Below are positions 4,460 through 63,600 of a stretch of 64,000 bases of DNA, piece by piece. The notes beneath the pieces were generated by a model. That model had not been told where the DNA came from and searched no databases. It worked only from the letters and a program-made list of their open reading frames with translations. This DNA is from a bacterium (GTDB lineage Bacteria; Planctomycetota; JAFGQW01), in NCBI GenBank assembly GCA_030426805.1, contig JAUHXU010000001.1, positions 1,204,861 to 1,268,860 of the forward strand. The letters are read 5' to 3'. The translations under genes were made by a program, and so were the position numbers. The stretch's first letter is position 1. Each line of letters starts with the position of its first letter.

Positions 4460-5740
4460 ATGAATCCGCTCCGCTCCCATCGCCTCGCCGCGCTCGCGCT
4501 CCTCGTCGCCGTGTGCACGATCGGCTCGCCCGGCGTGCAATCCACCGGTGCGCAGTCGTTCGGCGACCTCCTCGTCGCCGACGGCAGCACGATCAGCCAG
4601 GGTGTCGTGCTCCGGCGCGACGCCGGCGGCACGGTCACGACGTGGTTCCGCGGCCTGTCCGGCTACTTTCCGAACTGGATCACGATGGCCGGCGACAACG
4701 AACGCGTCACCGTCGCGCTCGCCGACAGCACCCAGTTCATCACCGGCGCGCACACGCTCGTCACGCCCGCCGGCGTCGTGTCGACCGTCCAGTTCTATTC
4801 GTCCTCGCTCGGGTTCCCGAACGGCCAGGCGCGCGACGGCGACGGTTCGACCTACAGTGCCCACCAGTCCGGCCTGTTGACGCGATACGACCCGCTGCTG
4901 CAGTCGTTCGGGACCGTCGGGATCGCCGGCCCCGCGCTCAACGCGATCGCGATCGACCGCGAGCGCGCGCGCGTCCTCGGCGTGGTCTTTCCGTCATCGA
5001 CACCGTTTCCCGGCTCGATCGTCCGCTATTCGCCGGCCAACGGCTCGATGACGACGCTGCTCTCCCAGAGCACCCTGATTTCGCAACCGACCGGCATCGC
5101 GGTCGATCCGAAGTCCGGCGACCTCGTCGTGGCACGGCTCGACGCGCCGGGGCTCCTGCGCTTCGATCCGATCCGCCGCACGCTCCAGACCCTCAACACG
5201 ATGGCCGGCCTCAACGGCCTCGTCGTGTCGACACGCAACACGTTTCTCGTGCCGGCGGGGCCGAGTGTGATCGAGTTCGCGACCGACGGAACCGTGCTCA
5301 ACACGTTCGCGTTCCCCGGCAAGGCGATCTCGAGCGTGCTCGAATACGGCAGCCGGCGGATCGCGCCATCGGGCACGGGGCTCCCGGGCACCGTGCACAC
5401 GATCGCGGTGACGGCGCCGGCGACCGACGCGAATCGCTCCTACTACCTCGGCGCGAGCCTCGGCGTGCGCCCCCCGATCGCGACGTTCGGTGGTGAACCG
5501 CTGAACCTCGCGGCCGACACGCTGCTCGCACTGTCGATCGGCGGAGGGCTGCCGGGCGTGTTCCAGCGGTTCGCCGGCGTCCTCGACGCCAGCGGGCACG
5601 CGACCGCCGCGATCGCGATCCCCGCGTCGCTGCCCGCCGGCCTCGACCTGCCGATCCACGTCGGCGGCATCGTCGCCGACCCGGCCGCGCCCAACGGCGT
5701 GAGCACCGTGCTCACGTCGTCGACGTTCGCGATCCGCTGA
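4460..5740 (+). CDS. Secreted beta-propeller protein with shared C-terminal module
   Basis: 426 residues from the ATG at 4460, which begins a good signal peptide (LAALALLVAVCTIGSPGVQSTGAQ). The body is built of repeated strand-rich units resembling NHL/YncE-type propeller blades, with phrases such as GIAVDPKSGDLVVARL and YSPANGSMTTLL. From about residue 305 the ~110-residue C-terminal module shared with eight other proteins here begins (ASLGVRPPI, LNLAADTLLALSIGGGLPGV, FAGVLDASGHATAAIAIP). No catalytic motif is visible. It is divergent from the MoxR operon, with 185 bp between the two starts. Ligand and role are unknown; extracellular or cell-surface location is inferred. Confidence 0.88.
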   Translation: MNPLRSHRLAALALLVAVCTIGSPGVQSTGAQSFGDLLVADGSTISQGVVLRRDAGGTVTTWFRGLSGYFPNWITMAGDNERVTVALADSTQFITGAHTLVTPAGVVSTVQFYSSSLGFPNGQARDGDGSTYSAHQSGLLTRYDPLLQSFGTVGIAGPALNAIAIDRERARVLGVVFPSSTPFPGSIVRYSPANGSMTTLLSQSTLISQPTGIAVDPKSGDLVVARLDAPGLLRFDPIRRTLQTLNTMAGLNGLVVSTRNTFLVPAGPSVIEFATDGTVLNTFAFPGKAISSVLEYGSRRIAPSGTGLPGTVHTIAVTAPATDANRSYYLGASLGVRPPIATFGGEPLNLAADTLLALSIGGGLPGVFQRFAGVLDASGHATAAIAIPASLPAGLDLPIHVGGIVADPAAPNGVSTVLTSSTFAIR

Positions 5741-5760
5741 CGCGGACGCGCGCCGCCGCG

Positions 5761-8761: not shown

Positions 8762-8811
8762 GCCACGGAGTCTACCAGGGAACGGAACCCGCAGCAGCGG
8801 AAGCGCGACGC

Positions 8812-11234: not shown

Positions 11235-12538
<1,304 letters not shown>

Positions 12539-12541
<3 letters not shown>

Positions 12542-12632: not shown

Positions 12633-12684
12633 GGCCGCGAGTCCGTGGTAGCCTGCACGGGAACGAGTCGAAAGGAGGTCGCAA

Positions 12685-15111
12685 ATGCGAGCTTGCTGCG
12701 CGTGGGTTGCGCTGGTGCTGGCAGCACTGCTTGTCGACGCGGCAACCGGTCAATCGACGCGCGCGGCGTCTCCGGTCTTCTTCGTGGAGAACCGCGATCG
12801 ATTTGAGTCAGCCGTGCGCTACTACGTCGAGGAGGTCGACGGGGCGATTTGCCTCGAAGATCGGTCGATCGTCTTTCGTCGGCACAGCCAGGCGGACTGG
12901 CGGCTCGAGTTCCCGAACGCGCGAGCAGGCGTCCGGCCTCGAGGCGAGGCCCCGCTTGAAACGCGACTGCACTACTTGATCGGCGCCGACCCCTCGAAGT
13001 GGCGCACGGATGTGCCGACGTTCGCCCAAGTCCGGTTTCGCGCCCTTTGGCACGGCATCGACCTCGTGATTCAAGCGACGGAGCGCGGACTGAAGTACGA
13101 GTTCCACGTCGCACCGGGAGCGGATCCCGGCGTGATCGCCATGCGCTACGTCGGTGCCAGGACGACGATTCGCGAGGACGGAGCGCTCGAGATCGACTGC
13201 GCCTCACGGCACGTCGATCCCGCTCCGGTGTCGTTTCAGCGCAAGTGTAACGGCACCCGAACCACCGTAGCGACGTCCTTCGCGCTCGATCCCGACTCGC
13301 CCGGCACGGTCGGATTCACGGTCGCCGACTACGACCGATCGAAGCCGCTCGTGATCGACCCAGTGTTCGTCGTTCACAGCGGCTACCTCGTCCCCGGGAT
13401 GATCACGGTCGGCAAGCCGGTATTCGATTCACAGGGGCGCATGTTCGTGGGCGGCATGGTCACGTCCCAGGACCGGCAAGGCGACGCAGCGTTCGCGCGC
13501 ATCAGAGCCGACGCATCGGGCTTCGACTTCATCACCGTATTCGGCGGTCCGAATGCGCCAGACACGGCGGACGTCGCACGAGTTGACGCGACCGGCATCT
13601 ACGTCGGCGGCGGAACCTACAGTAATGAGAGCGCGTTCCCTGTCGTGGTCGGTCCTGACCTGACGCACAATGGCAACTGCGACGGGTACGTTGCAAAGTT
13701 CGCGCTCGACGGAAAGACCATTCTGTTCTGCGGCTATGTCGGAGGCAGTGCCTACGACAGTGGTCAACTCGTGGTCGATTCGGCCGGCGCGATCTGGCTC
13801 GCAGGGAGCACCGAGAGCGCAGATTTTCCGGTCGTCGGCGGCCCGCAGACCACGTTGCCGAGTGGCGAGTCAGGGTTCGTGACCAAGGTCGCGCCCGACG
13901 GCCGCTCGCTCCTTGTGTCAGGCTACATCGGCGGCGCAAGCGGGTTCTATCAGCGGGTATTCAGCCTCGACCTCGACTCGAACGACGATGTGTACCTCCT
14001 CGGGTGGACCGCCGCGGACGAAACGACGTTCCCCGTGAAGATCGGGCCGCAAACCAAAGCCCCCGGTGACTGGAGTTGCTTCGTAGCGAAGATTGCGGGC
14101 CAGACCGGAGCGGTCGTCTATTCCGGCTTCGTGGGCGGAGCGCGCTTCGATCAGCCGTTTGATATCGCGGTCGACGCGCAAGGGGCGGCCTACGTCACCG
14201 GCATCACGTTCAGCGACGAGACGAGTTTCCCCGTGATCGCGGGGCCGCGTCTCACCGCACGTCCAACGCTCGTGGGCACGGAGTTCTTCGTCTCCAAGAT
14301 TCACCCGACCGGCGCCGGCTTCGGCTACTCCGGTTTCCTCGGGGGTATGCGCCCCGATGCCGTCGCAGTCGACCGCCAGGGACGTTGCTACCTCGCCGGC
14401 ACGTCCCTCTACGGTATCTCGTATCCCTTCCCGTCGCCGTTTCCCCTCGGCGGTGCGCTCTCAAGCATCAACGCCGGCGGCGCGGACGGCACCGTGTGCC
14501 GGCTGGCCGTCGACGGCCGGTCGTTCGACTACGGTGGCCACTTCGGGGGAACGGGAACCGACCGCGTCGTGACGATCGCGCTCGGCCCGACAGGTGCCTT
14601 GTATCTCACCGGGATCACCGACAGCCGAGGTACGTTTCCGACGCGCATCGGCCCGAGTCTCGTCGACAACAACATCAACAACCCACTCGGCCCGAACCTG
14701 CCCGGGACGTTCCTGACGCGGATCGGCCAAACGGTGGCGGCTGTGCCGCAAACAGCGCGCCCAGGTACGGTTGTCCCGGTCGACTGCGTCGCCTCTGAGG
14801 ACGTCGGCTTTCCGTTCCAGGTTGCCACTGCGCTCGGAGTCGGACCGATCCCGTTGCCGGGGGGGCGCCGGCTCGCTCTCGGGCCGGACGCACTCTTCCA
14901 GGCGAGCGTTCTCGGCGCATGGCCCGGCGTGTTCCAGAACTACGCCGGTGTCGTTCCACCGACAGGCGAGTGGCGCTCGGTGATTCGTCTGCCCGCGTCG
15001 ACCGCGCTCGTCGGGCTTCAACCACGCACTGCGTTCGCGACGTTTGCGGCAAGTGCTCCCGGCGGCATCAACTCGGTATCGAATGCAGCCGTCGTGCGGA
15101 TTGTGCCGTGA
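12685..15111 (+). CDS. Secreted SBBP-repeat beta-propeller protein with shared C-terminal module
   Basis: 808 residues. The start is set by a strong SD (AAAGGAGG at 12671-12678, 6 nt before ATG) and a signal peptide (WVALVLAALLVDAATGQ). Residues about 28-230 form the N-terminal domain typical of SBBP proteins (FFVENRDRF, HGIDLVIQATERGLKYEFHV, PLVIDPVFV). Then follow about seven SBBP blades with the pattern YVGGGTYSNESAFPVVVGPD, DGYVAKFALDGKTILFCGYV. From about residue 690 comes the shared C-terminal module (FQVATALGVGPIPL, LALGPDALFQASV, GVFQNYAGVV). Function is unknown; cell-surface or extracellular location is inferred. Base composition is a little lower in GC than in the flanking operons. 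Confidence 0.93.
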   Translation: MRACCAWVALVLAALLVDAATGQSTRAASPVFFVENRDRFESAVRYYVEEVDGAICLEDRSIVFRRHSQADWRLEFPNARAGVRPRGEAPLETRLHYLIGADPSKWRTDVPTFAQVRFRALWHGIDLVIQATERGLKYEFHVAPGADPGVIAMRYVGARTTIREDGALEIDCASRHVDPAPVSFQRKCNGTRTTVATSFALDPDSPGTVGFTVADYDRSKPLVIDPVFVVHSGYLVPGMITVGKPVFDSQGRMFVGGMVTSQDRQGDAAFARIRADASGFDFITVFGGPNAPDTADVARVDATGIYVGGGTYSNESAFPVVVGPDLTHNGNCDGYVAKFALDGKTILFCGYVGGSAYDSGQLVVDSAGAIWLAGSTESADFPVVGGPQTTLPSGESGFVTKVAPDGRSLLVSGYIGGASGFYQRVFSLDLDSNDDVYLLGWTAADETTFPVKIGPQTKAPGDWSCFVAKIAGQTGAVVYSGFVGGARFDQPFDIAVDAQGAAYVTGITFSDETSFPVIAGPRLTARPTLVGTEFFVSKIHPTGAGFGYSGFLGGMRPDAVAVDRQGRCYLAGTSLYGISYPFPSPFPLGGALSSINAGGADGTVCRLAVDGRSFDYGGHFGGTGTDRVVTIALGPTGALYLTGITDSRGTFPTRIGPSLVDNNINNPLGPNLPGTFLTRIGQTVAAVPQTARPGTVVPVDCVASEDVGFPFQVATALGVGPIPLPGGRRLALGPDALFQASVLGAWPGVFQNYAGVVPPTGEWRSVIRLPASTALVGLQPRTAFATFAASAPGGINSVSNAAVVRIVP

Positions 15112-15128: not shown

Positions 15129-16403
15129 ATGCTCATCCAACGACCCGCTATCTTCGTGGTTCTCGCGCTTCTCTTGCCCGCAGCAGGGGTGCGTGCGCAA
15201 GTATGGACTCGGGTGTCGCCGTCGGGGCCGCCACGCGCCACGCTCCCGACAGCCGCATACGATGCAGCGCGACAACGAGTCGTCTGGTTCGACGGTGCCA
15301 ACTCTACCGCCAACACGTGGGAGTGGGACGGCGCGACGTGGACGATGCGCAACCCTGCGACCTCGCCGACGGCGCCGGGGATCCACACGATGGCATACGA
15401 TGCCGCACGCGAACGGATCGTCCTTCTCGAAGCGTCAGCTAGGACGACTTGGGAGTGGGACGGCGTCACCTGGACGCAGCGTGCCGCAGGCCCCGCGCCG
15501 GGGCTCAACGCGATTCCGCAACCGTTCATGACCTACGACGCCGCGCGGCAGCGCGTCGTTGCGATCGGAAACGGCAGCGCGCTGGGCGAGACATGGGAGT
15601 GGGACGGCTCCACCTGGACCTTCGGGGGGAACCTGCCGATTCTCGGCCCGATCGCATATGACGCAGCGCGTCAGCGAACGGTCGTGCAGGGCTCTGGCCT
15701 CACGTTCGAGTGGGACGGGAACACGTGGACGCAGGCGCCGGTGCTCGGCCCACAGATTCCCCCGTACGTCGGGGAACTGCCGCAGATGACGTACGACGCC
15801 GCGCGCGGGCGCCTCGTGCTGGCCGGTCGAGACCTCCGGTCGCCGCCTCGCAACACCGAGGTTTGGGAGTGGAACGGCTCGGCGTGGGTGCTCCAGCCGC
15901 TGTTGACGAAACCCGGTGTGCAACCGTTTCGCATCGCGTATGACGAGAGTCGCCGGACGGTCGTGCTCGCCGGGGCCGGAGAGACCTGGGAGTACGGCTT
16001 CACGCCACAGCAGCCGCCGGCGACCCCGTGGCTCGAGGTGCAGGGCGCCCCGCGCGTCGGTTCGACGGTGACGTTGCGATTGACGGCCGCGATGGACGTT
16101 GGGCGCGCCTTCCAGGTCGCGTCGTCGCTCGGGAGCGGGACGATTCTCGTCGGCACGCGGCGGATCGGGCTCGCAGCGGACGGCCTGTTCCAGGTGTCGG
16201 TCGGTGGCGCCCTGCCAGGGATCTTCGGCAACTACCGCGGTGTCGTGCCCGCGTCCGGCGTCGCGTCGGCCTCCGTCGCGATCCCCAACGTCCAGGTCCT
16301 CGTCGGCGTGACGGTGTTCTCCGCGTTCGTCACACTCGACCCGGCGGCGTCCTTCGGCATCCGTGGCATCGCGTTGTCCAAGCCGTTCACGATCTCACCG
16401 TGA
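15129..16403 (+). CDS. Secreted kelch-like six-bladed propeller with shared C-terminal module
   Basis: 424 residues from the ATG at 15129, preceded by AGGGAAG at 15114-15120; the alternative GTG at 15123 adds two residues. Signal peptide: IFVVLALLLPAAGVRAQ. Six repeats of the form MTYDAARQRVV...TWEWDGSTW run from about residue 37 to 300, the pattern of a six-bladed kelch/galactose-oxidase-like propeller. The shared C-terminal module starts near residue 308 (AFQVASSLGSGTILV, LAADGLFQVSVGGALPGIF). The gene starts 18 nt after the preceding SBBP gene, so they are probably one transcript. No copper-radical Cys/Tyr signature of galactose oxidase was identified. Confidence 0.92.
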   Translation: MLIQRPAIFVVLALLLPAAGVRAQVWTRVSPSGPPRATLPTAAYDAARQRVVWFDGANSTANTWEWDGATWTMRNPATSPTAPGIHTMAYDAARERIVLLEASARTTWEWDGVTWTQRAAGPAPGLNAIPQPFMTYDAARQRVVAIGNGSALGETWEWDGSTWTFGGNLPILGPIAYDAARQRTVVQGSGLTFEWDGNTWTQAPVLGPQIPPYVGELPQMTYDAARGRLVLAGRDLRSPPRNTEVWEWNGSAWVLQPLLTKPGVQPFRIAYDESRRTVVLAGAGETWEYGFTPQQPPATPWLEVQGAPRVGSTVTLRLTAAMDVGRAFQVASSLGSGTILVGTRRIGLAADGLFQVSVGGALPGIFGNYRGVVPASGVASASVAIPNVQVLVGVTVFSAFVTLDPAASFGIRGIALSKPFTISP

Positions 16404-19080: not shown

Positions 19081-20835
19081 CTACGGGATGATCGCCAGCT
19101 CGACAGGGTTGCTCACGTAGTCGACCGTGGGGCTGACGATGCCGAACGCGTGCGCGAACCGCAGACCGGCGAGCGAACCGGGCAGGCCAGGCGGCAAGGT
19201 GAATCGAGCAACGGCACGACCGCTGGTGTCGAGCATGCCGCGTGATCCGGAAAGCGGCGCCGCGTTGGGGTTTTGCAACGTGTACACGAGGTACGGATCG
19301 AGGTTCAACGGCGCGGTGAGCGGGCCAAGGGCGATGCCCGGCCACGTGCCCGCCAGCGAACCGAGCAGCACATAGGACGCGCCGGAGTGCCGCAGCCCGG
19401 CATCGATGGCGAGGGTCTGCACGCCCCCCGCGGAGCGCGACAGCGTGGCCGGAACGCCGCGCAAGCTCGGCACGGCGTCGAATGCGCCTGCGTCGAGCGG
19501 CAGCGATCGCGCCGCGCCAATGAGGTCGAACGAAACGCGATGCGCGACGTCGGCGCGCCCGTTGATCGGTCCGCCCGCAATCGGGCGTGCGTCGAGACCG
19601 GCAGCATCCCACGCAACGCCGACGAAATCGCCGAGTCCGGTGCCGGTCGTGTATCCGCCCGCGCTTCCGGTCACGGCACCGAGCACGACGTTGCCCGCGA
19701 CGACGTTGCCGCTGGAACCGCCCCGGAAGCGAATCGCCTCCTGATCCCGGCTGTAGACCACGTTGTTCGCGAACGTCATCGCCGCACGGTTGTTCCAGTT
19801 CGACAGGTTCGCCCCACGCCCGCGGTTCACGAACGTGTTGTGCACGACGGTCAAGTTCGTCGACTGCCCCTGGTGGTCGCGGCTGTGGAACGCGTCGAAC
19901 GCCGCATTCACGACGAGGTTGTTCCGCACGAGCGCTTCGCCCTGCACCTGCATTCCGTTGTCGAGGGAGTTGTAGACGACGTTGCGCTCCACGACGTTCT
20001 CTCCGACACCGCCCGTCCCATAGACGAGGATGCCGGGGTAGCGCGTATCGTGCACGATGTTGCCCACGATCCAGTTGTGGTGCGACCCCTGCTTGAGCTC
20101 GATTCCGTCCCCCTGCGTCCCGCCAGCCGTGTGGTGGACGTAGTTCAACGCGATCACGGAGTCGCGCATGATCTTCGCGCCGTTGTTCGCGCCGAGGTAC
20201 ATGCCCTCGCCGGTATCGCCCGCGTTACCCGGGTGGTGAATCTCGTTTCGCGTGATGTAGATCCGCTCGGTGTCCCTCGAGTTGGTCGCGATCCCGACGC
20301 CGTCGCCGTGGTGAATGTGGCATTGATCGATCCACACGTCGCGGCAGTCGTAGAGCTTGATCAGATCGTCACCCCCGGTGAACTCCAGGTGGCGAAAGCA
20401 GACGAACCGCGTCGGTGCGCTCTCGCCGACATTCATCAGGTTCTGTCGAGTATCGCTCCGGGTCAGCACGGGCTTGCGATTCGGGTCCGCGCCCATGATC
20501 CAGATCGGAGCGGATGCCGTGCCCTGGACCGTGACGTCCCATTTGACGGGGACCGACACGACCGAGTATGTGCCCGGGCCGATCAGCAGTGCGTCGCCGG
20601 GCTGAAGCCCTTGCACCGCGGCCGCCAGGTTGAGGCCGTTCTGCGTCGAGGTCAGGTTGCCGTCATACGTGAACGGAATCACGCGCAGCGGCACGACGGT
20701 TTGCCAGGCGGGAAAGAACGATGTCGGCAACCACGCCGGGCTCTGCGATTGTGCGCCACCCATCCCCACGGCGGCGCCGACCGCGAATACGGTGAGCAAG
20801 GCCCGTCGGAGCGGATGCAGAGAACACGTTTTCAC
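19081..20835 (-). CDS. Secreted right-handed beta-helix protein with shared C-terminal module
   Basis: 584 residues; the SD GGAGGTG precedes the ATG at 20835. The signal peptide ends near VGMGGAQ. After GDALLIGPGTYSVVSV, the chain shows repeated short coils with Asn/His-rich turns (WIDQCHIHHGDGVGIATNS, RNEIHHPGNAGDTGEGMYLG, NWIVGNIVHDTRYPGILVYG, VVERNVVYNSLDNGMQVQG), the pattern of pectate-lyase-like or polysaccharide-lyase beta-helices. The shared C-terminal module occupies about the last 115 residues, in a divergent form (YVLLGSLAGTWPGI, LNLDPYLVYTL, RGMLDTSGRAVARFTLPPGL). Polysaccharide binding or cleavage is likely but no catalytic set can be named. Confidence 0.9.
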   Translation of the reverse strand: MKTCSLHPLRRALLTVFAVGAAVGMGGAQSQSPAWLPTSFFPAWQTVVPLRVIPFTYDGNLTSTQNGLNLAAAVQGLQPGDALLIGPGTYSVVSVPVKWDVTVQGTASAPIWIMGADPNRKPVLTRSDTRQNLMNVGESAPTRFVCFRHLEFTGGDDLIKLYDCRDVWIDQCHIHHGDGVGIATNSRDTERIYITRNEIHHPGNAGDTGEGMYLGANNGAKIMRDSVIALNYVHHTAGGTQGDGIELKQGSHHNWIVGNIVHDTRYPGILVYGTGGVGENVVERNVVYNSLDNGMQVQGEALVRNNLVVNAAFDAFHSRDHQGQSTNLTVVHNTFVNRGRGANLSNWNNRAAMTFANNVVYSRDQEAIRFRGGSSGNVVAGNVVLGAVTGSAGGYTTGTGLGDFVGVAWDAAGLDARPIAGGPINGRADVAHRVSFDLIGAARSLPLDAGAFDAVPSLRGVPATLSRSAGGVQTLAIDAGLRHSGASYVLLGSLAGTWPGIALGPLTAPLNLDPYLVYTLQNPNAAPLSGSRGMLDTSGRAVARFTLPPGLPGSLAGLRFAHAFGIVSPTVDYVSNPVELAIIP

Positions 20836-21981: not shown

Positions 21982-23223
21982 ATGAGATCGTATCCGGATC
22001 GTGCTGCCATTGCGCTCGTGCTCGTCTGGGCGTTCTGCTCGTTGACGTCAGCCGTGGCACAGGTCCATCACGGGCATGTGATCCTCGGCGTTTCGAGCGC
22101 CTCGCGTAACCAAGCACACGTCCTGAGCATCGACCCGACCAGCGGGAGGCAAGCGACGATTCTCACGACGATGGTCGGCGTGAATTGCATCCGCATGTCG
22201 CCGGACAACGACTCGCTGACCGTCGCGTTCTACAGCGGCGGCGGGCCGGGCACGATCGCACGCGTCTTCCCCAACGGGACGACCGTGCCGCTCAACTGGG
22301 TCGGCGCGGTGGTCTCCGACATGGAACTCGATGGCGACAACGAGTGGTATTGCGCCGGCCTGCTCGCCGGTCACCGACTGTTCACGGTCCACGACCCGTC
22401 CGGCATTCCGACGACCATCTCGAAGCAACGGGCGCTGTCGATGGCGGTCGTCGAGGAGCAGGGGCTGCGGTATGCGGGCGCGGCCCGCTACGTCGTGCCC
22501 CAGCTGTTCTTCACCGATCGGCAAGGGCGCATCACGACGATGATCCGGTCGACGCCCCAACTCGAACTGACCGACGTCGAACTGCGACCGCGCACCGGCG
22601 AACTGGTGCTCGGTGGGGTGACGGCACCGGAACTGCGTACCCTGACGCAGTCGGGGTTGGTCCTGCCACTCGGTACGTTCCCGCAAGTACAGGCGATCCG
22701 CGTCGGCGCAGACGACACGATGTGGGTCTCGGGATTTCCGACGACCGGCAACCCCGCGGTCATGCGGTTCGACCTCCAGACGCAGACCGTGTTGACCGTG
22801 CATTCCGTCGCGGCAGCGCCCGGCGCGCTCCTGACCGGCCTGGAGATTTACGGGCGCCGACTGCTGCGGTGCGAGAAGCGATCGGTCAACACCATCGACG
22901 TCGTCTTGGCGGCCAACACGTCGTTCTGGGGCCGGCAGTATCAACTCGCGGCGAGTCTCGGGCGCCGCCCGGGTGTTCGGCTTCCCGCCGGCGAGTTCCT
23001 GTCCCTCGATGTCACGGATGGTCTGTTCGCACTCTCGGCGCGGAACTTGGCCCCCACGATCTTCTCCAACTTCAGCGGCCGCGTGCCTCGGATCGGCGTG
23101 CGCGCGACGATCAACTTGCCGCCGGGCACCCCACGGCTCGGCATTCCCGTGTTCGTCAGCGGCGTGATCCATGGGCTGAGCAGGCCCGCGACTGCGCTGA
23201 ACACGCACTGGTTCCGGCTCTGA
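21982..23223 (+). CDS. Secreted beta-propeller-like protein with shared C-terminal module
   Basis: 413 residues; GGGAGAGAG lies about 6 nt upstream of the ATG. The signal peptide is ALVLVWAFCSLTSAVAQ. The body resembles the propeller at 4460-5740 (VLSIDPTSGRQATILTTMVG, IRMSPDNDSLTVAFYSGGG, ELDGDNEWYCAGL, VELRPRTGELVLGGV). The C-terminal module begins near residue 300 (YQLAASLGRRPGVRLPAGEF, LDVTDGLFALSARNLAPTIF, INLPPGTPRLGIPVFVSGV). Divergent from the GDSL gene, with 198 bp between starts. No enzymatic motif is seen. Confidence 0.88.
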   Translation: MRSYPDRAAIALVLVWAFCSLTSAVAQVHHGHVILGVSSASRNQAHVLSIDPTSGRQATILTTMVGVNCIRMSPDNDSLTVAFYSGGGPGTIARVFPNGTTVPLNWVGAVVSDMELDGDNEWYCAGLLAGHRLFTVHDPSGIPTTISKQRALSMAVVEEQGLRYAGAARYVVPQLFFTDRQGRITTMIRSTPQLELTDVELRPRTGELVLGGVTAPELRTLTQSGLVLPLGTFPQVQAIRVGADDTMWVSGFPTTGNPAVMRFDLQTQTVLTVHSVAAAPGALLTGLEIYGRRLLRCEKRSVNTIDVVLAANTSFWGRQYQLAASLGRRPGVRLPAGEFLSLDVTDGLFALSARNLAPTIFSNFSGRVPRIGVRATINLPPGTPRLGIPVFVSGVIHGLSRPATALNTHWFRL

Positions 23224-25668: not shown

Positions 25669-25670
25669 CT

Positions 25671-25773: not shown

Positions 25774-27423
25774 CTACTGGATGCGGAACGACGCGGTGTG
25801 GCTGATCGTGCGGATCACTTGCGTCGCGCTCGTGTCGATCGTCACGAACGCGCTGTGGATCTGGATGCCGATCAGGGCGGGGACGTTGGGGACGTTGAAG
25901 CGCGCGAAGCCGTTTCCGCTCGCGTCGAGCGCGCGCGCGTAGCGCTCGAACACCGTCGGGAGCAGCCCCGTGATGGACAGCGACATCACGGCGTCAAAGC
26001 TCAACCGAAGCACGCGATCGTCGACCGTGATCGGGCCGGTGCCGAGCGACGACGCCAGTTGATACGGCAAGCCGGCGTCGAGCGGCGCCGAGAGATCGTA
26101 TCGGACCGTGGTGCCGATCTGTCCGCTCCCCGTGGTCGTGAGCGACACGTGAGCCTCGTCCGCGCCGATGTCGACCGGCGCCGAGCGCGGCTCGCCCTCG
26201 AAGTCGTTCGTGACGAACGTCGCCGGGCCGGGCATGTACGTGGGGACGATCTCGGTCGTGCCGGCATCGATCAGCGGCGAATCGGGAAGCAACCGCACGT
26301 CGATGGGCGCCGTGAGGCTCACGAGCCGCGGGTCGCCCTCGATGCTGTTCGCGTCGTAGGCGGTCGCGCCGCCGGGGATGATCGCGGTCGGATTCCCCTG
26401 CTGCCACAGGCGAAACTGCGCGAGGGACCCGCCGAACACGGGGTTCGACACCGACCCGACGACCAGTGTGACCGGACAGTTCGGCGCCCAGAAGGCGTTG
26501 TGATCCGTCACGAGCGGATCGAGCCAGCCGTCGCCCTGGTCCCATGAATACCGAATCGCGGGCGCGGGTCCGAAGTTCACGACGATGTTGTTGCGGAACG
26601 ACATCGCGTCTCGCCACTGCCCTTGGCCGCCGATCGTGATCTTCACCGCCGTCACCTCGGTGCTAACGATCACGGTGTTGTGTGCGAAGACGAGACCGTC
26701 GACGTTCCCCTGGACCAGGAACGCCTCTCCATCCGAGGCGCATCCGTGCAGCAGGCAGTTCCGAATGATCGACCGCGGCAGGGACGCGTTCGGATAGTCG
26801 ATGTGGAAACAGCGGAACGACGTACCCTTTCCGTCGAACTCGCACCCGTCGTAGATCGCGCCGAGCGCGTCGTAGTGGATCGCCGGCCAGCCGTTCGCGC
26901 GAAAGATGCAATTCCGAAACAGCAGATTCTCGTTCACGTCGCGAATTTCCACTCCGTTCGCATTCGGCCAAAACGAGGTCCCGTTGTCGACCTCGCACGA
27001 CTCGAACGTGCAACCGGACACGCCGGGCCCCCCGCCTTCGATGAGAATCCCGGTGTCGATGAACCCCGTCACGAAGACGTTCTTCACCGACACGCTCCGA
27101 GCGCCGGGACGAATGTGGATGCCGTAGCGCTGATTCGTCACTGGCGGACTGATCGTCGCCCGCCCGCGCGTCGCCTCGAACGTCAGCGAGTAGGCGGTCG
27201 ACGTCGTGCCCGGCCCGCTGAGGAGCAGCGTCTCGTTGAACGTCGTCGGCGCGAGGTCGAACACGACGTCGCCGTTGATCCCGCTCGCGAGCGCCTGCGT
27301 CGCGGCACCGATCGTTTGGTAGTTTCGCCCGCCCGCCGGCAGCGTCGGGTCGATCGTGTAGGTTCCGCTGAGCTGAGCCGTGAGTGGCGTCATCGTCAGC
27401 AGCAACAGGGTGATCCAGCGCAT
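25774..27423 (-). CDS. Secreted parallel beta-helix protein with shared C-terminal module
   Basis: 549 residues from the ATG at 27423, chosen because GGAGAG stands just upstream and a short signal peptide (WITLLLLTMTPLTAQ) follows. The chain has repeated beta-helix coils (FVTGFIDTGILIEGGG, GCTFESCEVDNGTSFWPN, LLFRNCIFRANGWPAIHYD, IRNCLLHGCASDGEAFLV) and a closing stretch DFEGEPRSAPVDIGADE, which is common at the end of the helix in many right-handed beta-helix proteins. The C-terminal module follows (YQLASSLGTGPITV, LRLSFDAVMSLSITGLLPTV, YARALDASGNGFARFNVP). Function unknown; surface or secreted. Confidence 0.9.
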   Translation of the reverse strand: MRWITLLLLTMTPLTAQLSGTYTIDPTLPAGGRNYQTIGAATQALASGINGDVVFDLAPTTFNETLLLSGPGTTSTAYSLTFEATRGRATISPPVTNQRYGIHIRPGARSVSVKNVFVTGFIDTGILIEGGGPGVSGCTFESCEVDNGTSFWPNANGVEIRDVNENLLFRNCIFRANGWPAIHYDALGAIYDGCEFDGKGTSFRCFHIDYPNASLPRSIIRNCLLHGCASDGEAFLVQGNVDGLVFAHNTVIVSTEVTAVKITIGGQGQWRDAMSFRNNIVVNFGPAPAIRYSWDQGDGWLDPLVTDHNAFWAPNCPVTLVVGSVSNPVFGGSLAQFRLWQQGNPTAIIPGGATAYDANSIEGDPRLVSLTAPIDVRLLPDSPLIDAGTTEIVPTYMPGPATFVTNDFEGEPRSAPVDIGADEAHVSLTTTGSGQIGTTVRYDLSAPLDAGLPYQLASSLGTGPITVDDRVLRLSFDAVMSLSITGLLPTVFERYARALDASGNGFARFNVPNVPALIGIQIHSAFVTIDTSATQVIRTISHTASFRIQ

Positions 27424-27591
27424 GGGTCTCTCCGATTCTCCATGGGTGCTTTTCTTCGCGAATCGCCGCGATCGTAGCACGGTTTTCCACGGAGGAGGAA
27501 CGCCATGCCGATGCCGACGGCCGGGACATCCGGTATGCTCCCAGCGGGTGATTCAAAACGGGGTCATGCGCCGAATTGCCGGAGGGTGATC

Positions 27592-30027
27592 ATGACACGG
27601 GTCGTACGGTTTTCGTGGGTGGTCCTGATCGCGTCGGCCTGCTTTGCGCAGTCACCGACGTTCGGACGGCTGCCGGTCTACTTCACGCAGAACGACGGAG
27701 TGCACCCGGACGACGTGCGCTTCTTCGTGCACGGTGCCGACAAATCGCTCTACTTCACGCGCACGGGCGTCACGTTCGCGCTCCGTTCGGCCGACACGAA
27801 CGACGCGTGGGCGCTGAAGCTCGACTTCGTCACGGAGCACGCGGGCGTCGACCCGATCGCACACGGCCGAGTGCAAGCGGTGCACAGCCACTTCGTCGGC
27901 CCCCAAGCGTCCTGGAAGCGCGGACTCCCCTGCTACGGCGGGCTCGTCTACCGCGACGTGTGGCCGGGAATCGACATCCAGTACGGCGGCACGGTCGATC
28001 GCCTGAAGTACGCGTTCCTCGTCCAGCCCGGCGCCGACCCGTCGCAGATTCGGCTGCGCTATCGGGGGGCGACCGCGCTGACCGTCACGCCACACCGAAC
28101 GCTGCGAATCGAGACGCCGGTGCTCACGTTCGAGGATGCAGCCCCGGTCGCCTATCAAACGCACGACGGCCGACGGGTCACGGTCCGGATGGACTACGTC
28201 ATCGCGCCCGACGGCTCGGTCGGGTTCGAACTCGGCGACTACGACCCGGCGGTGCCGTTGGTCCTCGATCCGGCGATCCTCCTCTACTGCGGCCTGATCG
28301 GTGGCGGGGCGAGTGACCGGGCCCAGAGCGTTGCCGTCGACGACCACGGAAACGTCTACCTCGCGGGCACCGTCTACAGCGCGGGCGCGACGTTCCCCAC
28401 CCGAGTCGGTCCGTTCCTGACAAAGGCGACGACCGGCCCGACGTCGTTCGTCGCGAAGGTCGACCCGACCGGAAGGGCGCTCGTCTACGCCGGCTTCATC
28501 GGTGGCGTGAACGGCGCAAACGGATACGGCGTCGCCGTCGACCGTGCGGGCGCTGCCTACGTCTGTGGACTGACGCAGAGCGACGAGCAGTCGTTTCCGG
28601 TCAAGGTCGGACCGTCGCTGACGATCGGCGCCGTCTCGACGGCCGGTTTCATCGCGAAGGTCGCGCCGTCCGGACGCGATCTCGTCTACTGCGGCTACAT
28701 CGGGTCTGCCTCGATTCCATACGACGTCGCCGTCGACGCAGCCGGGGCCGCCTACCTCACCGGTCGAGCGGTGCCCGGCCAATGGGCGCCGAATCTGCCG
28801 GGGCCGGATCCGACCTTCAACGGCGGGATCCTGGATGCATTCGTCGCGAAGGTCCACCCGTCCGGCTCGAAGCTCGACTACGGCGGCTACATCGGCGGGA
28901 CCGGCACCGAGGAAGGGCTCTCGATCGCCGTCGACTCTTCGGGCGCCGCCTACGTCATCGGGTCGACCGGCAGCGATGAAACGAGCTTCCCGGTCGCCGG
29001 TGGCCCCGACCTCACCTTCAACGGCCTGCGCGACGCCTTCGTCGCCAAGGTCCGCCCCGACGGGACGGCCCTCGTCTACTGCGGCTACCTCGGCGGCGCA
29101 CTGGACGACCAGGGCAGGGAGATCGCCGTCGGACCGGGTGGCGAGGCCTATCTGGCGGGGTCGGCCTACTCCGACGAGACGACCTTCCCGGTCACGGTCG
29201 GTCCCGACCTGACGCACAACGGCGTGGCGGACGCCTTCGTCGCGAAGCTCGACGCGACCGGCCGAACGCTCGTCTACTGCGGCTTCGTGGGCGGCAGCCA
29301 GGGCGACATCGCGGACGGGCTCGCAATCGACTCGATCGGACGCGCCTACATCACGGGCAACACCGTGAGTCCGGACCTTCCACTTCGCAGCGGCCCCTCG
29401 AGCACGCACTCGGGCAACGTCGACGCGCTCGTCGCGCGCATCGCGGCCAGCGGACTCAGCATCGAGTTCTGCGGCTACATCGGTGGCGTCGGCCGCGACC
29501 TCGGTATGGACATCGCGGTGGGGCCGACCGACGCGGCCTACGTGGCCGGCGAGGCGAGCGCGCTCGCGCAGGAGGGCTTCCCGCTGAAGACGGGGCCGGG
29601 CCTCACCTACAGCGAGACCGCCGACGCGTTCGTCGCGAAGGTGGGCTGCACGCACCTCCTGGACTCGGGAACGCCCTCGCTCGGCGCCACGGTGACCTTC
29701 GACCTCACCGCGCTCGACAGCCCGGGCCTCACGGTTCAGTTCGGCTCGTCGCTCGGCAACGGGCCGCTGCCGATCGGACGACGCAAGCTCGGGCTCGCGA
29801 TCGACCCGATGCTGCAAGCCAGCGTCGGCGGTGCGCTGCCGACGGTGTTCCGGGGCTACGCCGGAACGGTCGGATCCAGTGGTTTCGCCCGCGCATCGGT
29901 CGCGATCCCGCCCATCCGCGCACTCGTCGGCGTGACGTTCCACACCGCGGCGGTCACGCTTCACGCGACCTCGCCCCAGGGGATCCGCGCGATCGCCAAC
30001 ACCGTCGCGCTGACGATCGTCCCGTAG
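27592..30027 (+). CDS. Secreted SBBP-repeat beta-propeller protein with shared C-terminal module
   Basis: 811 residues from the ATG at 27592, preceded by GGAGGGTGATC. The signal peptide is VVLIASACFAQ. The N-terminal SBBP-associated domain (VYFTQNDGVHPDDVRFFVHG, WPGIDIQYGGTVDRLKYAFL) is followed by about eight SBBP blades (YLAGTVYSAGATFPTRVGPF, FVAKVDPTGRALVYAGFIGG, repeated about every 50 residues). The C-terminal module starts near residue 688 (TVQFGSSLGNGPLPIGRRKL, LAIDPMLQASVGGALPTVF). It is a paralogue of the protein encoded at 12685-15111. Function unknown. Confidence 0.94.
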   Translation: MTRVVRFSWVVLIASACFAQSPTFGRLPVYFTQNDGVHPDDVRFFVHGADKSLYFTRTGVTFALRSADTNDAWALKLDFVTEHAGVDPIAHGRVQAVHSHFVGPQASWKRGLPCYGGLVYRDVWPGIDIQYGGTVDRLKYAFLVQPGADPSQIRLRYRGATALTVTPHRTLRIETPVLTFEDAAPVAYQTHDGRRVTVRMDYVIAPDGSVGFELGDYDPAVPLVLDPAILLYCGLIGGGASDRAQSVAVDDHGNVYLAGTVYSAGATFPTRVGPFLTKATTGPTSFVAKVDPTGRALVYAGFIGGVNGANGYGVAVDRAGAAYVCGLTQSDEQSFPVKVGPSLTIGAVSTAGFIAKVAPSGRDLVYCGYIGSASIPYDVAVDAAGAAYLTGRAVPGQWAPNLPGPDPTFNGGILDAFVAKVHPSGSKLDYGGYIGGTGTEEGLSIAVDSSGAAYVIGSTGSDETSFPVAGGPDLTFNGLRDAFVAKVRPDGTALVYCGYLGGALDDQGREIAVGPGGEAYLAGSAYSDETTFPVTVGPDLTHNGVADAFVAKLDATGRTLVYCGFVGGSQGDIADGLAIDSIGRAYITGNTVSPDLPLRSGPSSTHSGNVDALVARIAASGLSIEFCGYIGGVGRDLGMDIAVGPTDAAYVAGEASALAQEGFPLKTGPGLTYSETADAFVAKVGCTHLLDSGTPSLGATVTFDLTALDSPGLTVQFGSSLGNGPLPIGRRKLGLAIDPMLQASVGGALPTVFRGYAGTVGSSGFARASVAIPPIRALVGVTFHTAAVTLHATSPQGIRAIANTVALTIVP

Positions 30028-38882: not shown

Positions 38883-39027
38883 CGAGAACCGCAACGCGTT
38901 CGTTGTCGTCCATGGGCGCTGTCGTCATTGGGCGCCGTCGCCCGTTGGGGTCGATCGTCCCGCGCCTGCCGCGCGCCCGGCCACGCCCTCGGTGCTCCGA
39001 TCCATCGCGATCCGAAAGGACTCCCGC

Positions 39028-57054: not shown

Positions 57055-57073
57055 CCGGCCGCCCCGGCGTCGG

Positions 57074-60358: not shown

Positions 60359-60433
60359 GGCGAGGACTACAGTACTCACCGCCGGCCCGATCGGTTCACC
60401 GTCCTCGAAAAGACGCCGGACGGCTCCACGGAC

Positions 60434-60471
60434 TCGGCGAGACGACGAAAGTGGTGATTCGGGTCGAGTAG
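60434..60471 (+). repeat. 38-bp direct repeat, copy B (orphan gene end)
   Basis: Identical to 57017-57054 except for one base (60453). It still reads GETTKVVIRVE-stop in one frame, but no gene leads into it: the preceding bases carry no continuing coding frame of that family. It lies upstream of the sigma-fusion start and 39 nt before the next plus-strand gene. Confidence 0.95.
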
Positions 60472-60509
60472 ACCGCAACGCGGCGTAGAATCGGCCGTCG
60501 AGGACTGCC

Positions 60510-61862
60510 GTGCACCGGATCGCCCGACTCCCCGCCCTGCTGATCGCCGTCGCGCTCGTCGCGTCGACGGTCGCGGCCCAGTACCATCCGCCCCACTACC
60601 TCGTCGCGGGCGCGCCGCGCATCGCGTCGCAACCGTCGCCGTCGGGCGTCTATCACGTCGACGCGAGCGGCTCGAGGGTCGCGGTCACGACGCTGTTCCA
60701 ACCGCGCGGCTACGTGCGCGCGATCATGGACGGCGACAACCGGTCGGTGCTCGTCGCGGTGCAAGGCAGCTCGGTGCCGAACTCACTGACGCAGAACCGA
60801 CCGAACATGGGCCTCTACCGCGTCGACCCGGCGAACAACGCCGTGACGACGCTGTTCTCGCTCTACAACGCCGGCACGCGATACATCTCGCTCTACGACA
60901 CCGTGCTCGACTACCACGGCGACTACGTCTCGGCGTCCTACAACTTCGACACGCAGCAGCCCTCGCAGACCGCGTGGGGCCTCGTGCGCATCACGCCGAC
61001 CGGCACGCTCAGCACGCTGCTGAGCACGATCAACGTCCGAGGGTATCTACCGTCCGAGATGACGCGCGACATGCGCACAGGCCGCCTCCTGCTCACGAAC
61101 TACCTGGGGCCGGCCGGCGTCATGGCCTACGACATCGACACCGGGACGATCTCGACGTTCTCGCCGGCATCGCTCGGCGTCCTCGCCACGCAATACTCGA
61201 TGCCGCAAGACCACGCGACCGGCGCGATCGAATTGGCGAGCCTGAGCTGGATGCTCCGACTGATGCCCGGCGCGTCGACCTACTCGACCCTCGCGACGCT
61301 CTCCGTGCCCGCACGCGGCGGTGGCGAGATCGACTTGCAGACCGCGCGCAGCCGGCGCTGGATCTACGCGACGCACGACGGGACCGGCAACAACGCGGCG
61401 CTGATGACGATCGCCGACGGCACGTATGCGGTGTCGACGCAGCCGATCGGCCTCGCCGACGCGTCCGACGACGTCGAGTTCTACCGAGGCCGACACACGC
61501 AGACCGTGCGGAGCGCCCCGCGGCAATGGTCGATTCTGCTCAGCGCGCCGATGTTCCCCGGCCGCGCCTACGCGGTCGCGCTCGGGCTCTCGGGCACGAC
61601 GCCGGCGACGCCGCTGCCCGGCGGGCGGCAGCTGAACCTGCGCATCGATGCACTGAGCGCGCTCACGATCGCCGACGCGGTGCGCCCGCGCTTTCACCCG
61701 GGGTCCGGGGTCCTCGCCGCCAACGGCGCGGCGACGGCCCGACTCGACATGCGCGGCACACCGCTGCTGGGCATTCCGTTGTGGATCGCCTGGATGGTGT
61801 TCGACCCCGCTGCACCGGGCGGCATCGCGTTCGTGCCCGATACCTACGTGATGCGGATCTGA
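60510..61862 (+). CDS. Secreted beta-propeller-like protein with shared C-terminal module
   Basis: 450 residues from a GTG with GAGGA upstream. The signal peptide is ALLIAVALVASTVAAQ. The body has propeller-like units (GLYRVDPANNAVTTLFSL, DMRTGRLLLTNYLGPAG, DHATGAIELASLSWML). The C-terminal module starts near 330 (YAVALGLSGTTPATPLPGG, LNLRIDALSALTIAD, GVLAANGAATARLDMRGTPL, GIPLWIAWMVFDPAAPGGI). It is close in sequence style to the protein at 4460-5740. No catalytic motif. Confidence 0.88.
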   Translation: MHRIARLPALLIAVALVASTVAAQYHPPHYLVAGAPRIASQPSPSGVYHVDASGSRVAVTTLFQPRGYVRAIMDGDNRSVLVAVQGSSVPNSLTQNRPNMGLYRVDPANNAVTTLFSLYNAGTRYISLYDTVLDYHGDYVSASYNFDTQQPSQTAWGLVRITPTGTLSTLLSTINVRGYLPSEMTRDMRTGRLLLTNYLGPAGVMAYDIDTGTISTFSPASLGVLATQYSMPQDHATGAIELASLSWMLRLMPGASTYSTLATLSVPARGGGEIDLQTARSRRWIYATHDGTGNNAALMTIADGTYAVSTQPIGLADASDDVEFYRGRHTQTVRSAPRQWSILLSAPMFPGRAYAVALGLSGTTPATPLPGGRQLNLRIDALSALTIADAVRPRFHPGSGVLAANGAATARLDMRGTPLLGIPLWIAWMVFDPAAPGGIAFVPDTYVMRI

Positions 61863-61869
61863 CCGACGG

Positions 61870-62370: not shown

Positions 62371-62451
62371 CGGGGACGTCCTTGCGAGTGGTGTCATGCG
62401 CGAGCCGAGAGGTGCCCGAAGCGAGCGCCTCTCGGCATCACGGTCGTGGTG

Positions 62452-63600
62452 CTACGGCGTGATCTGGGTCTTCGCCGGGCCGGAGATCGCGCGAATCCCC
62501 TGCGGCGCGGAGCCGTCGATCGTCACGAATGCGAGCGAGAACGGGATGCCCGCGAGCACCGGAATCGCCGGCACGTTGACCTGGCCGGTCGCATTGCCGC
62601 TTCCGTCGAGCACGCCGGACATGCCCTGGAAGACGCTCGGCGCCGCCAGGCTCAACGTGAACAGCGAATCCAGCGACAGCGGGACGTAGCGCGTGCCGAC
62701 CGGAATGCCGCCCTCGAGGAACGAGGCCGCGGCCTGGTAGGGCAGGTTCGCCGAGGACCCGGCGACCCACTGGATCGGCAGCGCCGTGCCGACCTGCACC
62801 GTGCTCGCGGCGACGACGCGCGGCAACCCCATGTCGAAGTCCTCGAGGCGCGAGCCGCTGTAGTGCGACGACCACGTCGTCTGCGCGCGATACGGGATCG
62901 CCGACCCGCGCGCACTGATCGTCGTCGAGAACGAGAACGCGCCGACGAAGGTCGGCGGGTTGCCGGCGCGGTACAGGAACATCTGGTTCTTGTCGCGGCC
63001 GACGATCGCCAGTATGTCGTTGATCCAGCTGTAGCCGACGTCTGCGGAACGGGTGCAACCCGACGCGGACAGCGAGAAGCTCGGCTGCAGCGTGTTGCCG
63101 GTCGAGGCATCCATCAGGTGCAGCAGGTTCGCCGACCAATCCGGCACCCAGTACGCGTCGCGGTTCGGATCGTAGGCCACGCCGATCGGGCGGGTCGACG
63201 GCGCGGGGAAGACCGTCGTGACGTTGCCGGTCAGATCGACGCGGGCGACGTCTCCGGAGCTGGCGCTGCACAGCACGTACTCGTTTCGCCGGCTGTCGTA
63301 GCCCATGCCGTACGGCGACGCGTAGTTGTGCTGCAACGACGACACGAGCGTGCCGCTCGGCGTGTATTCGTAGATCACCGACGGACTCGACGTGTAGAGT
63401 CCGGCGACGTTGCCGTTGACCGGCGCGGTGCCGACGACGCGGACCGGCGTCGCGATCGACGTGAGCGACGTGCCCGCGGGCCCGTCGACCGAGATGACCG
63501 GGAACGACCCGACGGGGTCGCCGTTGACGTCGAATTGCTGTGCCAGGGCGCTCCCGGAGAGCGCGGCAACCGCGGCAACCGATGCGAGGACCTTCTTCAT
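62452..63600 (-). CDS. Secreted beta-propeller-like protein with shared C-terminal module
   Basis: 382 residues from the ATG at 63600 (GGAG 5 nt upstream); an ATG at 63618 would add 6 residues but has no SD. The signal peptide is VLASVAAVAALSGSALAQ. The body shows propeller strands with Asp/Asn turns (GYDSRRNEYVLCSASSGD, GVAYDPNRDAYWVPDWSAN, YSWINDILAIVGRDKN). The C-terminal module begins near 270 (YQAAASFLEGGIPVGTRY, LSLDSLFTLSLAAPSVFQ, GVLDGSGNATGQVNVP, LAGIPFSLAFVTIDGSAPQG). Function unknown. Confidence 0.9.
   Translation of the reverse strand: MKKVLASVAAVAALSGSALAQQFDVNGDPVGSFPVISVDGPAGTSLTSIATPVRVVGTAPVNGNVAGLYTSSPSVIYEYTPSGTLVSSLQHNYASPYGMGYDSRRNEYVLCSASSGDVARVDLTGNVTTVFPAPSTRPIGVAYDPNRDAYWVPDWSANLLHLMDASTGNTLQPSFSLSASGCTRSADVGYSWINDILAIVGRDKNQMFLYRAGNPPTFVGAFSFSTTISARGSAIPYRAQTTWSSHYSGSRLEDFDMGLPRVVAASTVQVGTALPIQWVAGSSANLPYQAAASFLEGGIPVGTRYVPLSLDSLFTLSLAAPSVFQGMSGVLDGSGNATGQVNVPAIPVLAGIPFSLAFVTIDGSAPQGIRAISGPAKTQITP

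What the first reader, a model, noticed from the sequence alone, without database searches (positions are those of the whole stretch)
4460..63600. Nine secreted proteins share one C-terminal module
The proteins at 4460, 12685, 15129, 19081, 21982, 25774, 27592, 60510 and 62452 have unrelated bodies (propellers, kelch, SBBP, beta-helix) but end in the same kind of ~110-residue domain. Consensus features: an aromatic plus xLxxSLGxGP turn, LxLxxDxLxxLSxxGxxP, then GxLDxSGxAxA, IP, an LxGI stretch, DPxAPxGI and a final strand. Positions in bases: about 5375-5737, 14755-15108, 16045-16400, 19084-19430, 22875-23220, 25777-26130, 29655-30024, 61490-61859 and 62455-62800. No PEP-CTERM, LPXTG or hydrophobic tail is present. 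The most economical reading is a targeting or surface-anchoring domain for a dedicated secretion or display system, as the type IX C-terminal domain is in Bacteroidota. I do not know a described name for it.
Basis: partly seen in the sequence, partly recalled or inferred. Interest (0 to 1): 0.8.

Follow-up and report, generated by a model that had tools for sequence, protein, structure and literature searches.

The report
Shared C-terminal tag on planctomycete exoproteins
Nine exported proteins in this planctomycete window end in the same undescribed immunoglobulin-like domain, which caps well over a hundred exported proteins in the genome and probably acts as an export or surface-display tag, though the machinery that would read it has not been found.

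Summary
All nine proteins end in one homologous ~120-residue domain: each is found by a profile of the other eight at 24-119 bits, bodies and shuffles giving about 3 at most. The genome has at least 187 copies. In own-genome stretches 95 of 95 copies with a stop in view end within 13 residues of it, one per protein, on 85 bodies forming 25-26 clusters (18 at a looser threshold), mostly behind a signal peptide. AlphaFold gives a confident V-type Ig-like sandwich. No Pfam or NCBIfam model covers it.

It occurs in 70 of 392 Planctomycetota genomes; a homologous QA-type occurs in 79, including those 70. A sorting or display tag fits best and resembles the type IX C-terminal domain, but SprA passes its cut-off in 0 of 392 genomes, exosortase is not associated, and type II genes do not discriminate. 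No partner was found; function is inferred. Against: one internal SLG-type and two N-terminal QA-type copies, and untailed DUF7948 proteins. Verdict: large unnamed family; tag most likely (0.5).

The parts
4460..5740 (+). exported propeller-like protein, 426 aa
   Evidence: signal-peptide-like N-terminus; SGL and NHL below cut-off
5345..5737 (+). C-terminal domain copy 1 (SLG-type)
   Evidence: 99.3 bits leave-one-out
12685..15111 (+). exported DUF7948 + SBBP-like protein
   Evidence: PF25778 E 6e-45; SBBP below Pfam's cut-off
14719..15108 (+). C-terminal domain copy 2
   Evidence: 95.8 bits leave-one-out
   Evidence: signal-peptide-like N-terminus; no Pfam match over cut-off
16011..16400 (+). 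C-terminal domain copy 3; the copy whose structure was predicted (from 16008)
   Evidence: 118.7 bits leave-one-out; AF2 pLDDT 97.1
19081..20835 (-). exported right-handed beta-helix protein
   Evidence: PF13229 E 3.9e-16
19084..19476 (-). C-terminal domain copy 4 (most divergent of the nine)
   Evidence: 24.0 bits leave-one-out
21982..23223 (+). exported propeller-like protein
   Evidence: signal-peptide-like N-terminus; body clusters with that of 60510; no Pfam match
22843..23220 (+). C-terminal domain copy 5
   Evidence: 47.3 bits leave-one-out
25774..27480 (-). exported right-handed beta-helix protein
   Evidence: PF13229 E 6.8e-9
25777..26163 (-). C-terminal domain copy 6
   Evidence: 116.7 bits leave-one-out
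27592..30027 (+). exported DUF7948 + SBBP protein
   Evidence: PF25778 E 4.8e-47, SBBP E 3.4e-14
29635..30024 (+). C-terminal domain copy 7
   Evidence: 109.2 bits leave-one-out
60510..61862 (+). exported propeller-like protein
   Evidence: signal-peptide-like N-terminus; SGL below cut-off
61470..61859 (+). C-terminal domain copy 8
   Evidence: 61.1 bits leave-one-out
62452..63618 (-). exported propeller-like protein
   Evidence: signal-peptide-like N-terminus; ScyD/ScyE family stretch below cut-off
62455..62838 (-). C-terminal domain copy 9
   Evidence: 89.8 bits leave-one-out

Best explanation
The domain is a C-terminal export or display tag. The protein is made with an N-terminal Sec signal peptide, crosses the inner membrane and folds in the periplasm. 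The Ig-like sandwich at its extreme C-terminus, whose last strand ends within a few residues of the carboxyl end, is then recognised by an envelope machine that moves the protein through the outer membrane or holds it at the surface. Shown here: one domain family, near-strict C-terminal single-copy position of the SLG-type, signal-peptide enrichment by a simple rule, body diversity, a predicted fold, occurrence in at least two classes of Planctomycetota, and a type II secretion operon in the same genome. Inferred: recognition, translocation, display and the identity of the machine. Type II, or an undescribed outer-membrane device, is likelier than type IX.
For: Own genome: at least 187 distinct places. 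In own stretches 95 of 95 copies with a stop codon in view end within 13 residues of it and 0 proteins have two. In other genomes 27 of 28 first-round copies and 20 of 20 chosen later (L185 repeats L038, so 19 new; for L189 the profile match ends 20 residues before the stop) are C-terminal. Signal-peptide rule: 82 of 85 testable tagged proteins against 70 of 117 untagged neighbours, Fisher p 2e-10. 85 bodies form 26 or 25 clusters, 18 at E<1e-3; 52 pairs share tails of at least 45% identity with no body similarity, so tail and body appear to reassort. Bodies include DUF7948/SBBP, beta-helix, Vgb-lyase and SGL propellers, M14 peptidase, PD40, FG-GAP, arylsulfotransferase and trypsin. Fold: pLDDT 97.1, V-type Ig, best PDB Z 9.4 over 107 residues at rmsd 3.0; the type IX CTD of RgpB is also Ig-like and its signal lies in the last 22 residues (PMC4804311, passages). 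18 of 18 DUF7948 proteins of the own genome end in the family (17 SLG, 1 QA; coordinates compared by eye); 0 of 11 fetched from two untagged genomes do. Type II operon F-G-H-I-J-K-L-(M)-C-D in the own genome.
Against: No partner gene was found. GspD-type secretins are in 60 of 60 genomes, tagged or not, GspK in 14 of 30 tagged against 19 of 30 untagged, exosortase in 14 of 30 against 11 of 30. No secretion gene was recognised beside the tagged genes in the window (30 of 33 other called genes scanned), and no recurring neighbour suggests one in 60 fetched stretches. One SLG-type copy (L022) lies 253 residues from the end. The related QA-type is sometimes near the N-terminus (1 of 20 sampled, L180; L053 in the own genome). 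In other positive genomes 11 of 29 DUF7948 proteins with a closed 3' end have neither tail by the profiles. Strongly conserved positions look structural, and the last two strands are not more conserved than the rest. With codon-called starts the signal-peptide contrast is weaker, 61 of 85 against 60 of 117. No localisation data exist.
Confidence: 0.5

Rival explanations
1. A passive extracellular accessory domain: an Ig-like module that binds matrix glycan, other proteins or itself, or caps open-ended beta bodies, and has no role in crossing the outer membrane.
For: Ig-like folds are common in adhesins and in binding modules (general knowledge), so the fold alone is not diagnostic. The QA subtype can sit near the N-terminus and one SLG-type copy is internal. 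Many bodies are open beta structures that a cap could stabilise. Conservation looks structural.
Against: Adhesive and binding Ig modules often occur in tandem and internally (general knowledge); here 0 proteins carry two and SLG-type copies are terminal in 95 of 95 own, 27 of 28 and 20 of 20 other cases. Peptidase and arylsulfotransferase bodies also carry it.
Confidence: 0.33
2. A type II secretion recognition module: the domain is what the genome's T2SS reads on its substrates. This is a special case of the best explanation, not an addition to it.
For: Own genome has a T2SS operon with GspD 502 bits, GspG over cut-off, and GspF, GspH, GspI, GspJ, GspK, a PilM-like and a GspC-like protein below cut-offs; substrates are Sec-exported proteins without visible membrane tails.
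Against: Secretins and GspK do not discriminate tagged from untagged genomes; T2SS substrates elsewhere are not known to share one domain (general knowledge).
Confidence: 0.25
3. A type IX secretion C-terminal domain, taking the reader's analogy literally.
For: Ig-like C-terminal sandwich behind Sec-exported proteins.
Against: SprA TIGR04189: 0 of 392 genomes over the cut-off (4 weak matches at E 0.01 or better), none in the own genome; that search rang in 0 of 14 control genomes, so its sensitivity is unproven here. Por_Secre_tail PF18962 has no match in the own genome and matches in 2 of 60 genomes. No T9SS model is among the matches of 117 domains.
Confidence: 0.02
4. A neutral hitch-hiker: one propeller-tail gene was duplicated many times and the bodies diverged, the tail having no common function.
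For: The largest body cluster holds 40 of 85 bodies at E<1e-5 and 48 at 1e-3, and tails group by genome (10 label changes on the tree against 24.4 in shuffles), so duplication within lineages is strong.
Against: 18 to 26 body clusters depending on threshold, several with unrelated Pfam folds; the tail is kept in 16 families of the phylum sample.
Confidence: 0.1

Closest known systems
Type IX secretion C-terminal domains (Por_Secre_tail PF18962 and others; types A and B), Bacteroidota
   Same: C-terminal Ig-like sandwich on many different Sec-exported proteins; the two subtypes here recall types A and B (analogy only)
   Different: no match to T9SS tail models, a V-type rather than seven-strand sandwich, and no SprA over the cut-off in 392 planctomycete genomes
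PEP-CTERM / exosortase sorting
   Same: large family of C-terminal tags on diverse exported proteins (general knowledge)
   Different: no such motif or hydrophobic tail; no exosortase match in the own genome and no association
Ig V-set domains (antibody VH, nanobodies)
   Same: fold, Z up to 9.4
   Different: sequence identity 6-13% in the listed rows; no evidence of homology
DUF7948 (PF25778) and SBBP proteins
   Same: frequent bodies in front of the domain; 18 of 18 in the own genome
   Different: that is the body, found also without the tail

Membership tests
Type IX secretion substrates | SprA translocon in the genome | tested here: not met
   TIGR04189: 0 of 392 over cut-off, no match in the own genome; the control genomes also gave 0 of 14
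Type IX secretion substrates | C-terminal sequence matches a T9SS CTD model | tested here: not met
   none among the matches of 117 domains in Pfam and NCBIfam at E 0.1; PF18962 no match in the own genome
Type IX secretion substrates | Ig-like C-terminal sandwich on Sec-exported proteins | tested here: met
   predicted model and VIA; signal-peptide rule; the RgpB CTD compared by text only
Type IX secretion substrates | outer-membrane translocation depends on the domain | not testable with these tools
   needs mutants
PEP-CTERM / exosortase | PEP motif, hydrophobic segment and basic tail at the C-terminus | tested here: not met
   nine C-termini read directly
PEP-CTERM / exosortase | exosortase co-occurs | tested here: not met
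   own genome 0; 14 of 30 tagged against 11 of 30 untagged genomes, p 0.6
Type II secretion substrate module | type II system in the genome | tested here: met
   operon in L204, GspG and GspD over cut-offs; GspE not in the fetched stretch
Type II secretion substrate module | domain distribution follows the type II system | tested here: not met
   GspD-type secretin 60 of 60; GspK 14 of 30 against 19 of 30
Ig V-set fold | V-type sandwich topology | tested here: met
   Z 9.4, 107 residues, rmsd 3.0 on a predicted model
Any family in Pfam-A or NCBIfam | match to a curated model | tested here: not met
   no family matched by more than 1 of 117 SLG-type members, best E 0.02; 0 of 19 QA-type at E 0.01

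The most novel reading that the evidence does not exclude
At least two classes of Planctomycetota run an undescribed protein export and surface-display pathway. Its substrates carry one of two homologous Ig-like C-terminal tags (SLG-type and QA-type, analogous to type IX types A and B), it serves around two hundred exported proteins in the window's genome, and it uses an outer-membrane machine that is neither type IX nor exosortase.
Probability: 0.33. Interest if true: 0.87.

Novelty: new variant of a known kind. Interest (0 to 1): 0.64.

Why it matters
How planctomycetes put proteins on or outside the cell is, as far as I know, poorly understood. A single profile now marks well over a hundred candidate substrates per genome in the window's class and points to carriers across the phylum sample. 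That makes the question directly testable: delete the domain, or pull down what binds it. If the function holds, it is a further, apparently independent case of an Ig-like sandwich serving as a C-terminal tag. It also gives annotators a large family that no Pfam or NCBIfam model covered here.

Tried and rejected
Type IX: rejected as membership. Exosortase: no association. Type II as a discriminating partner: secretin in all 60 test genomes, GspK not associated; kept only as a plausible general exporter. Search for a conserved neighbour of tagged genes in 60 own-genome stretches plus the window: the families of three or more untagged proteins are two-component proteins, sigma/carboxypeptidase-regulatory fusions, a membrane protein, ABC-type ATPases and a group joining GDSL- and CotH-like proteins (labels mine). 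Window neighbours: no secretion gene recognised in 30 of 33 other called genes. DUF7948 looked like a co-occurring partner (21 of 30 against 2 of 30) but is a body in front of the tail. PDB profile search: best E 0.13, an antibody VHH. Type IX CTD chains did not appear among the listed fold matches; this excludes nothing. The QA-type model has no PDB match at E 0.001 or better; best VIA Z 8.6, A2ML1. Plasmids and phages: no match for the three queries tried. Six literature searches listed no paper that describes this domain; I saw only titles and abstract beginnings, except passages of PMC4804311. Occurrence outside Planctomycetota was not tested, apart from one narrow genome contigs pattern scan whose single confirmed locus was a planctomycete.

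Limits: phylum scans score only 10-11 candidates per genome, so copy counts there are floors. The signal-peptide test is a home-made hydropathy rule; with starts allowed 60 residues upstream it gave 82 of 85 against 70 of 117, with codon-called starts 61 of 85 against 60 of 117 (61 of 86 and 63 of 133). 15 of the 18 tailed DUF7948 proteins seeded the QA profile, so that count is not independent. Domain copies were called distinct by sequence. In one search a 26-residue fragment match in another frame of L170 (16.5 bits), and four further frames with matches (L181, L183, L193, L197), are outside the counts of 20. The 20 QA-type copies were picked from the top of the list, the 20 later SLG-type ones. 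The 30 tagged and 30 untagged test genomes were picked by me from the handles; 16 of the 30 untagged ones were only counted there as unmatched, not listed. None of the 30 untagged is among the nine extra QA-type genomes.
Full report
Observation. The nine segments are real and homologous. They align over 140 columns with 28-34% identity to the first. A profile built from eight finds the ninth every time (24-119 bits); the bodies and shuffled versions that scored at all stay at or below 3.1 bits, and the best of 4535 reversed ORFs reaches 6.8 bits with the nine-row profile. The bodies are less unrelated than stated: at BLAST E<1e-3 the nine make five groups, four propeller-like proteins together and the two DUF7948 proteins together; at 1e-5 they make seven. 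Two beta-helices are confirmed by Pfam; the kelch label is not.

Scale. Searching the genome that holds the window (5.58 Mb, 6 contigs) with one domain gave 150 matches, the scoring cap. A 117-row profile again gave 150 of 150 scored, the weakest at 100 bits, from 455 candidates. The union of both lists is 185 distinct places; two copies seen only in fetched stretches make 187, a lower bound. It corresponds to a Planctomycetota MAG, isolate Zod_Metabat.792: the copy in L010 matches a contig of that record over its whole length at 100%, and the contig lengths agree.

Anatomy. In own-genome loci and the window I found 96 copies distinct by sequence; all 95 with a stop in view end 0-13 residues before it. 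No protein carries two. In other genomes 27 of 28 first-round copies are terminal; the exception, L022, has 253 residues after the domain. Of 20 SLG-type copies fetched later, 20 are terminal; L185 repeats L038, and for L189 the profile match stops 20 residues short of the stop. With starts allowed up to 60 residues upstream of the codon-called one, 82 of 85 testable tagged proteins pass a signal-peptide rule against 70 of 117 untagged neighbours (Fisher p 2e-10); with codon-called starts only, 61 of 85 against 60 of 117. Lipobox-like motifs appear in 3 of 86 tagged proteins. Body sequences fall into 26 or 25 clusters of 85 at E<1e-5, and 18 at 1e-3. Scanning 84 full-length tagged proteins against Pfam finds DUF7948 (10), SBBP (9), beta-helix (3), Vgb lyase (3), SGL (3), zinc carboxypeptidase M14 (2), PD40 (2), NosD (2), and single FG-GAP, arylsulfotransferase and trypsin bodies among others. 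52 protein pairs have tails at least 45% identical and no detectable body similarity, so tails and bodies appear to recombine. Tails also group by genome (10 label changes on the tree; 200 shuffles averaged 24.4, minimum 20), which points to expansion within lineages.

Fold. AlphaFold2 on the 15129 gene's domain with 117 rows gives pLDDT 97.1 and pTM 0.89. Foldseek and VIA-align place it with V-type immunoglobulin domains, Z up to 9.4 over 107 residues at rmsd 3.0; nearly all listed matches are antibody chains, so this speaks of fold, not of ancestry. Strongly conserved positions include D58 (97%), G84 (95%), G100 (94%), G78 (89%), P45 (88%), L55 and G117 (82%), P115 (80%), Y35 (78%) and S40 (76%). 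D58 directly precedes the only helix of four or more residues, G84 and G100 sit in turns and Y35 in a strand, which suggests structure rather than a catalytic site. The last two strands are not more conserved than average.

Known families. None of 117 domains gives a credible Pfam or NCBIfam match (each listed family matches one member only, best E 0.02), nor does the PDB by profile (best E 0.13). Six literature searches listed nothing on it (listings only).

Distribution. In 392 Planctomycetota genomes drawn evenly, the domain profile finds 69 (A1) or 70 (A2) positives, the 70 in 16 families. The almost unchanged number with a much broader profile suggests a sharp boundary. The own class is represented by two held genomes, both positive, so the other 68 lie in at least one other class.

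A second subtype. Checking what DUF7948 proteins end in elsewhere showed a second terminal domain with ...YxQAxxxDxxxPxGxxASNGL.... Profile-profile comparison with the first gives probability 96.9 and E 1.8e-10 over 110 columns, and iterated searches from this subtype recover the SLG-type. I call them SLG-type and QA-type. QA-type matches occur in 79 of 392 genomes, which include all 70 SLG-positive ones plus G107, G179, G243, G274, G302, G324, G358, G366 and G371; the QA profile may pick up SLG-type copies, so the overlap may be partly built in. It also occurs in the own genome, for example on two proteins that I read as CotH-like and one as GDSL-like. Its AlphaFold model (pLDDT 96.2) is again a beta sandwich whose best VIA matches are Ig-like and macroglobulin domains (Z 8.6), with no PDB match at E 0.001. 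It is terminal in 19 of 20 sampled copies; L180 has it near the N-terminus before a body that I read as metallo-beta-lactamase-like, and L053 of the own genome carries a QA-like domain right after the signal peptide. No Pfam or NCBIfam match for 19 members.

The body-versus-tail test. 18 of 18 DUF7948 proteins of the own genome have a family tail at the expected place (17 SLG-type, 1 QA-type, by matching coordinates by eye). In two untagged genomes with DUF7948 proteins (G020, G027), 0 of 11 carry either tail; in other positive genomes 18 of 29 with a closed 3' end do, two more being cut off (15 of the 18 seeded the QA profile). So the same body is often tagged where the tag exists and untagged where it does not, but tagging is not obligatory.

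Which machine? SprA, the type IX translocon, reaches its cut-off in 0 of 392 genomes, though the same search also rang in 0 of 14 control genomes. The type IX tail family PF18962 has no match in the own genome and matches in 2 of 60. Exosortase has no match in the own genome and is not associated (14 of 30 tagged, 11 of 30 untagged). Type II: the own genome has an operon in the order F, G, H, I, J, K, L, an unmatched gene at the M position, C and D (GspG and GspD over their cut-offs, the other assignments below; GspE not in the fetched stretch, which ends within F). Secretins occur in 60 of 60 test genomes and GspK in 14 of 30 tagged against 19 of 30 untagged. So type II is available but does not explain the distribution. 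No gene family that suggests a partner recurs beside tagged genes.

How it most likely works. By the pattern of known tags (many different exported bodies, one copy, almost always last, unlinked genes, lineage-specific expansion, two subtypes), I read it as an export or display signal acting after Sec. The nearest functional parallel is the type IX CTD, an Ig-like sandwich whose last 22 residues carry the signal (PMC4804311, passages seen). Membership in type IX fails on the tests made; working like it remains likely. The main rival, a passive extracellular accessory domain, is not excluded, and the internal and N-terminal cases and the untailed DUF7948 proteins speak for keeping it.

Novelty. 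A large, apparently unnamed domain family with a probable but untested sorting role: a new variant of a known kind of thing (C-terminal sandwich tags), not a member of a described system.

Noticed in passing
window 57074-60358 (-): ECF-type sigma factor (regions 2 and 4) fused to CarboxypepD_reg domains (8 stretches) in one 1094-aa frame; a related protein lies in L040:691-3948.
   Followed up: no
window 38992-46854 (+): 2620-aa bacterial alpha-2-macroglobulin (MG2, bait region, A2M, TED, MG10) with tetratricopeptide repeats at both ends.
   Followed up: no
L180 and L053 (+ strand frame from 2820): QA-type domain near the N-terminus, in L053 right after the signal peptide, followed by a metallo-beta-lactamase-like body (L180) or a propeller-like body (L053), both by my reading.
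   Followed up: partly
L204 (own genome C1:398500-415500): Type II secretion operon GspF to GspD with a PilM-like protein at the GspL position and a GspC-like gene.
   Followed up: yes
window 20890-21783 (-): GDSL-like lipase between two tagged genes, itself not among the nine tagged proteins.
   Followed up: no
G012 and G312 (family f13), L101, L102: Faint SprA matches (12-15 bits) in frames of 1677-2004 aa in planctomycete genomes.
   Followed up: no
L122 (G020): Two DUF7948 proteins of an untagged genome end in another shared tail...DIKPD...N.I..GS.GV.PVAILSS..., not examined further.
   Followed up: no
L022 (G019): An SLG-type copy followed by 253 further residues, the only clearly internal SLG-type copy seen.
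   Followed up: no
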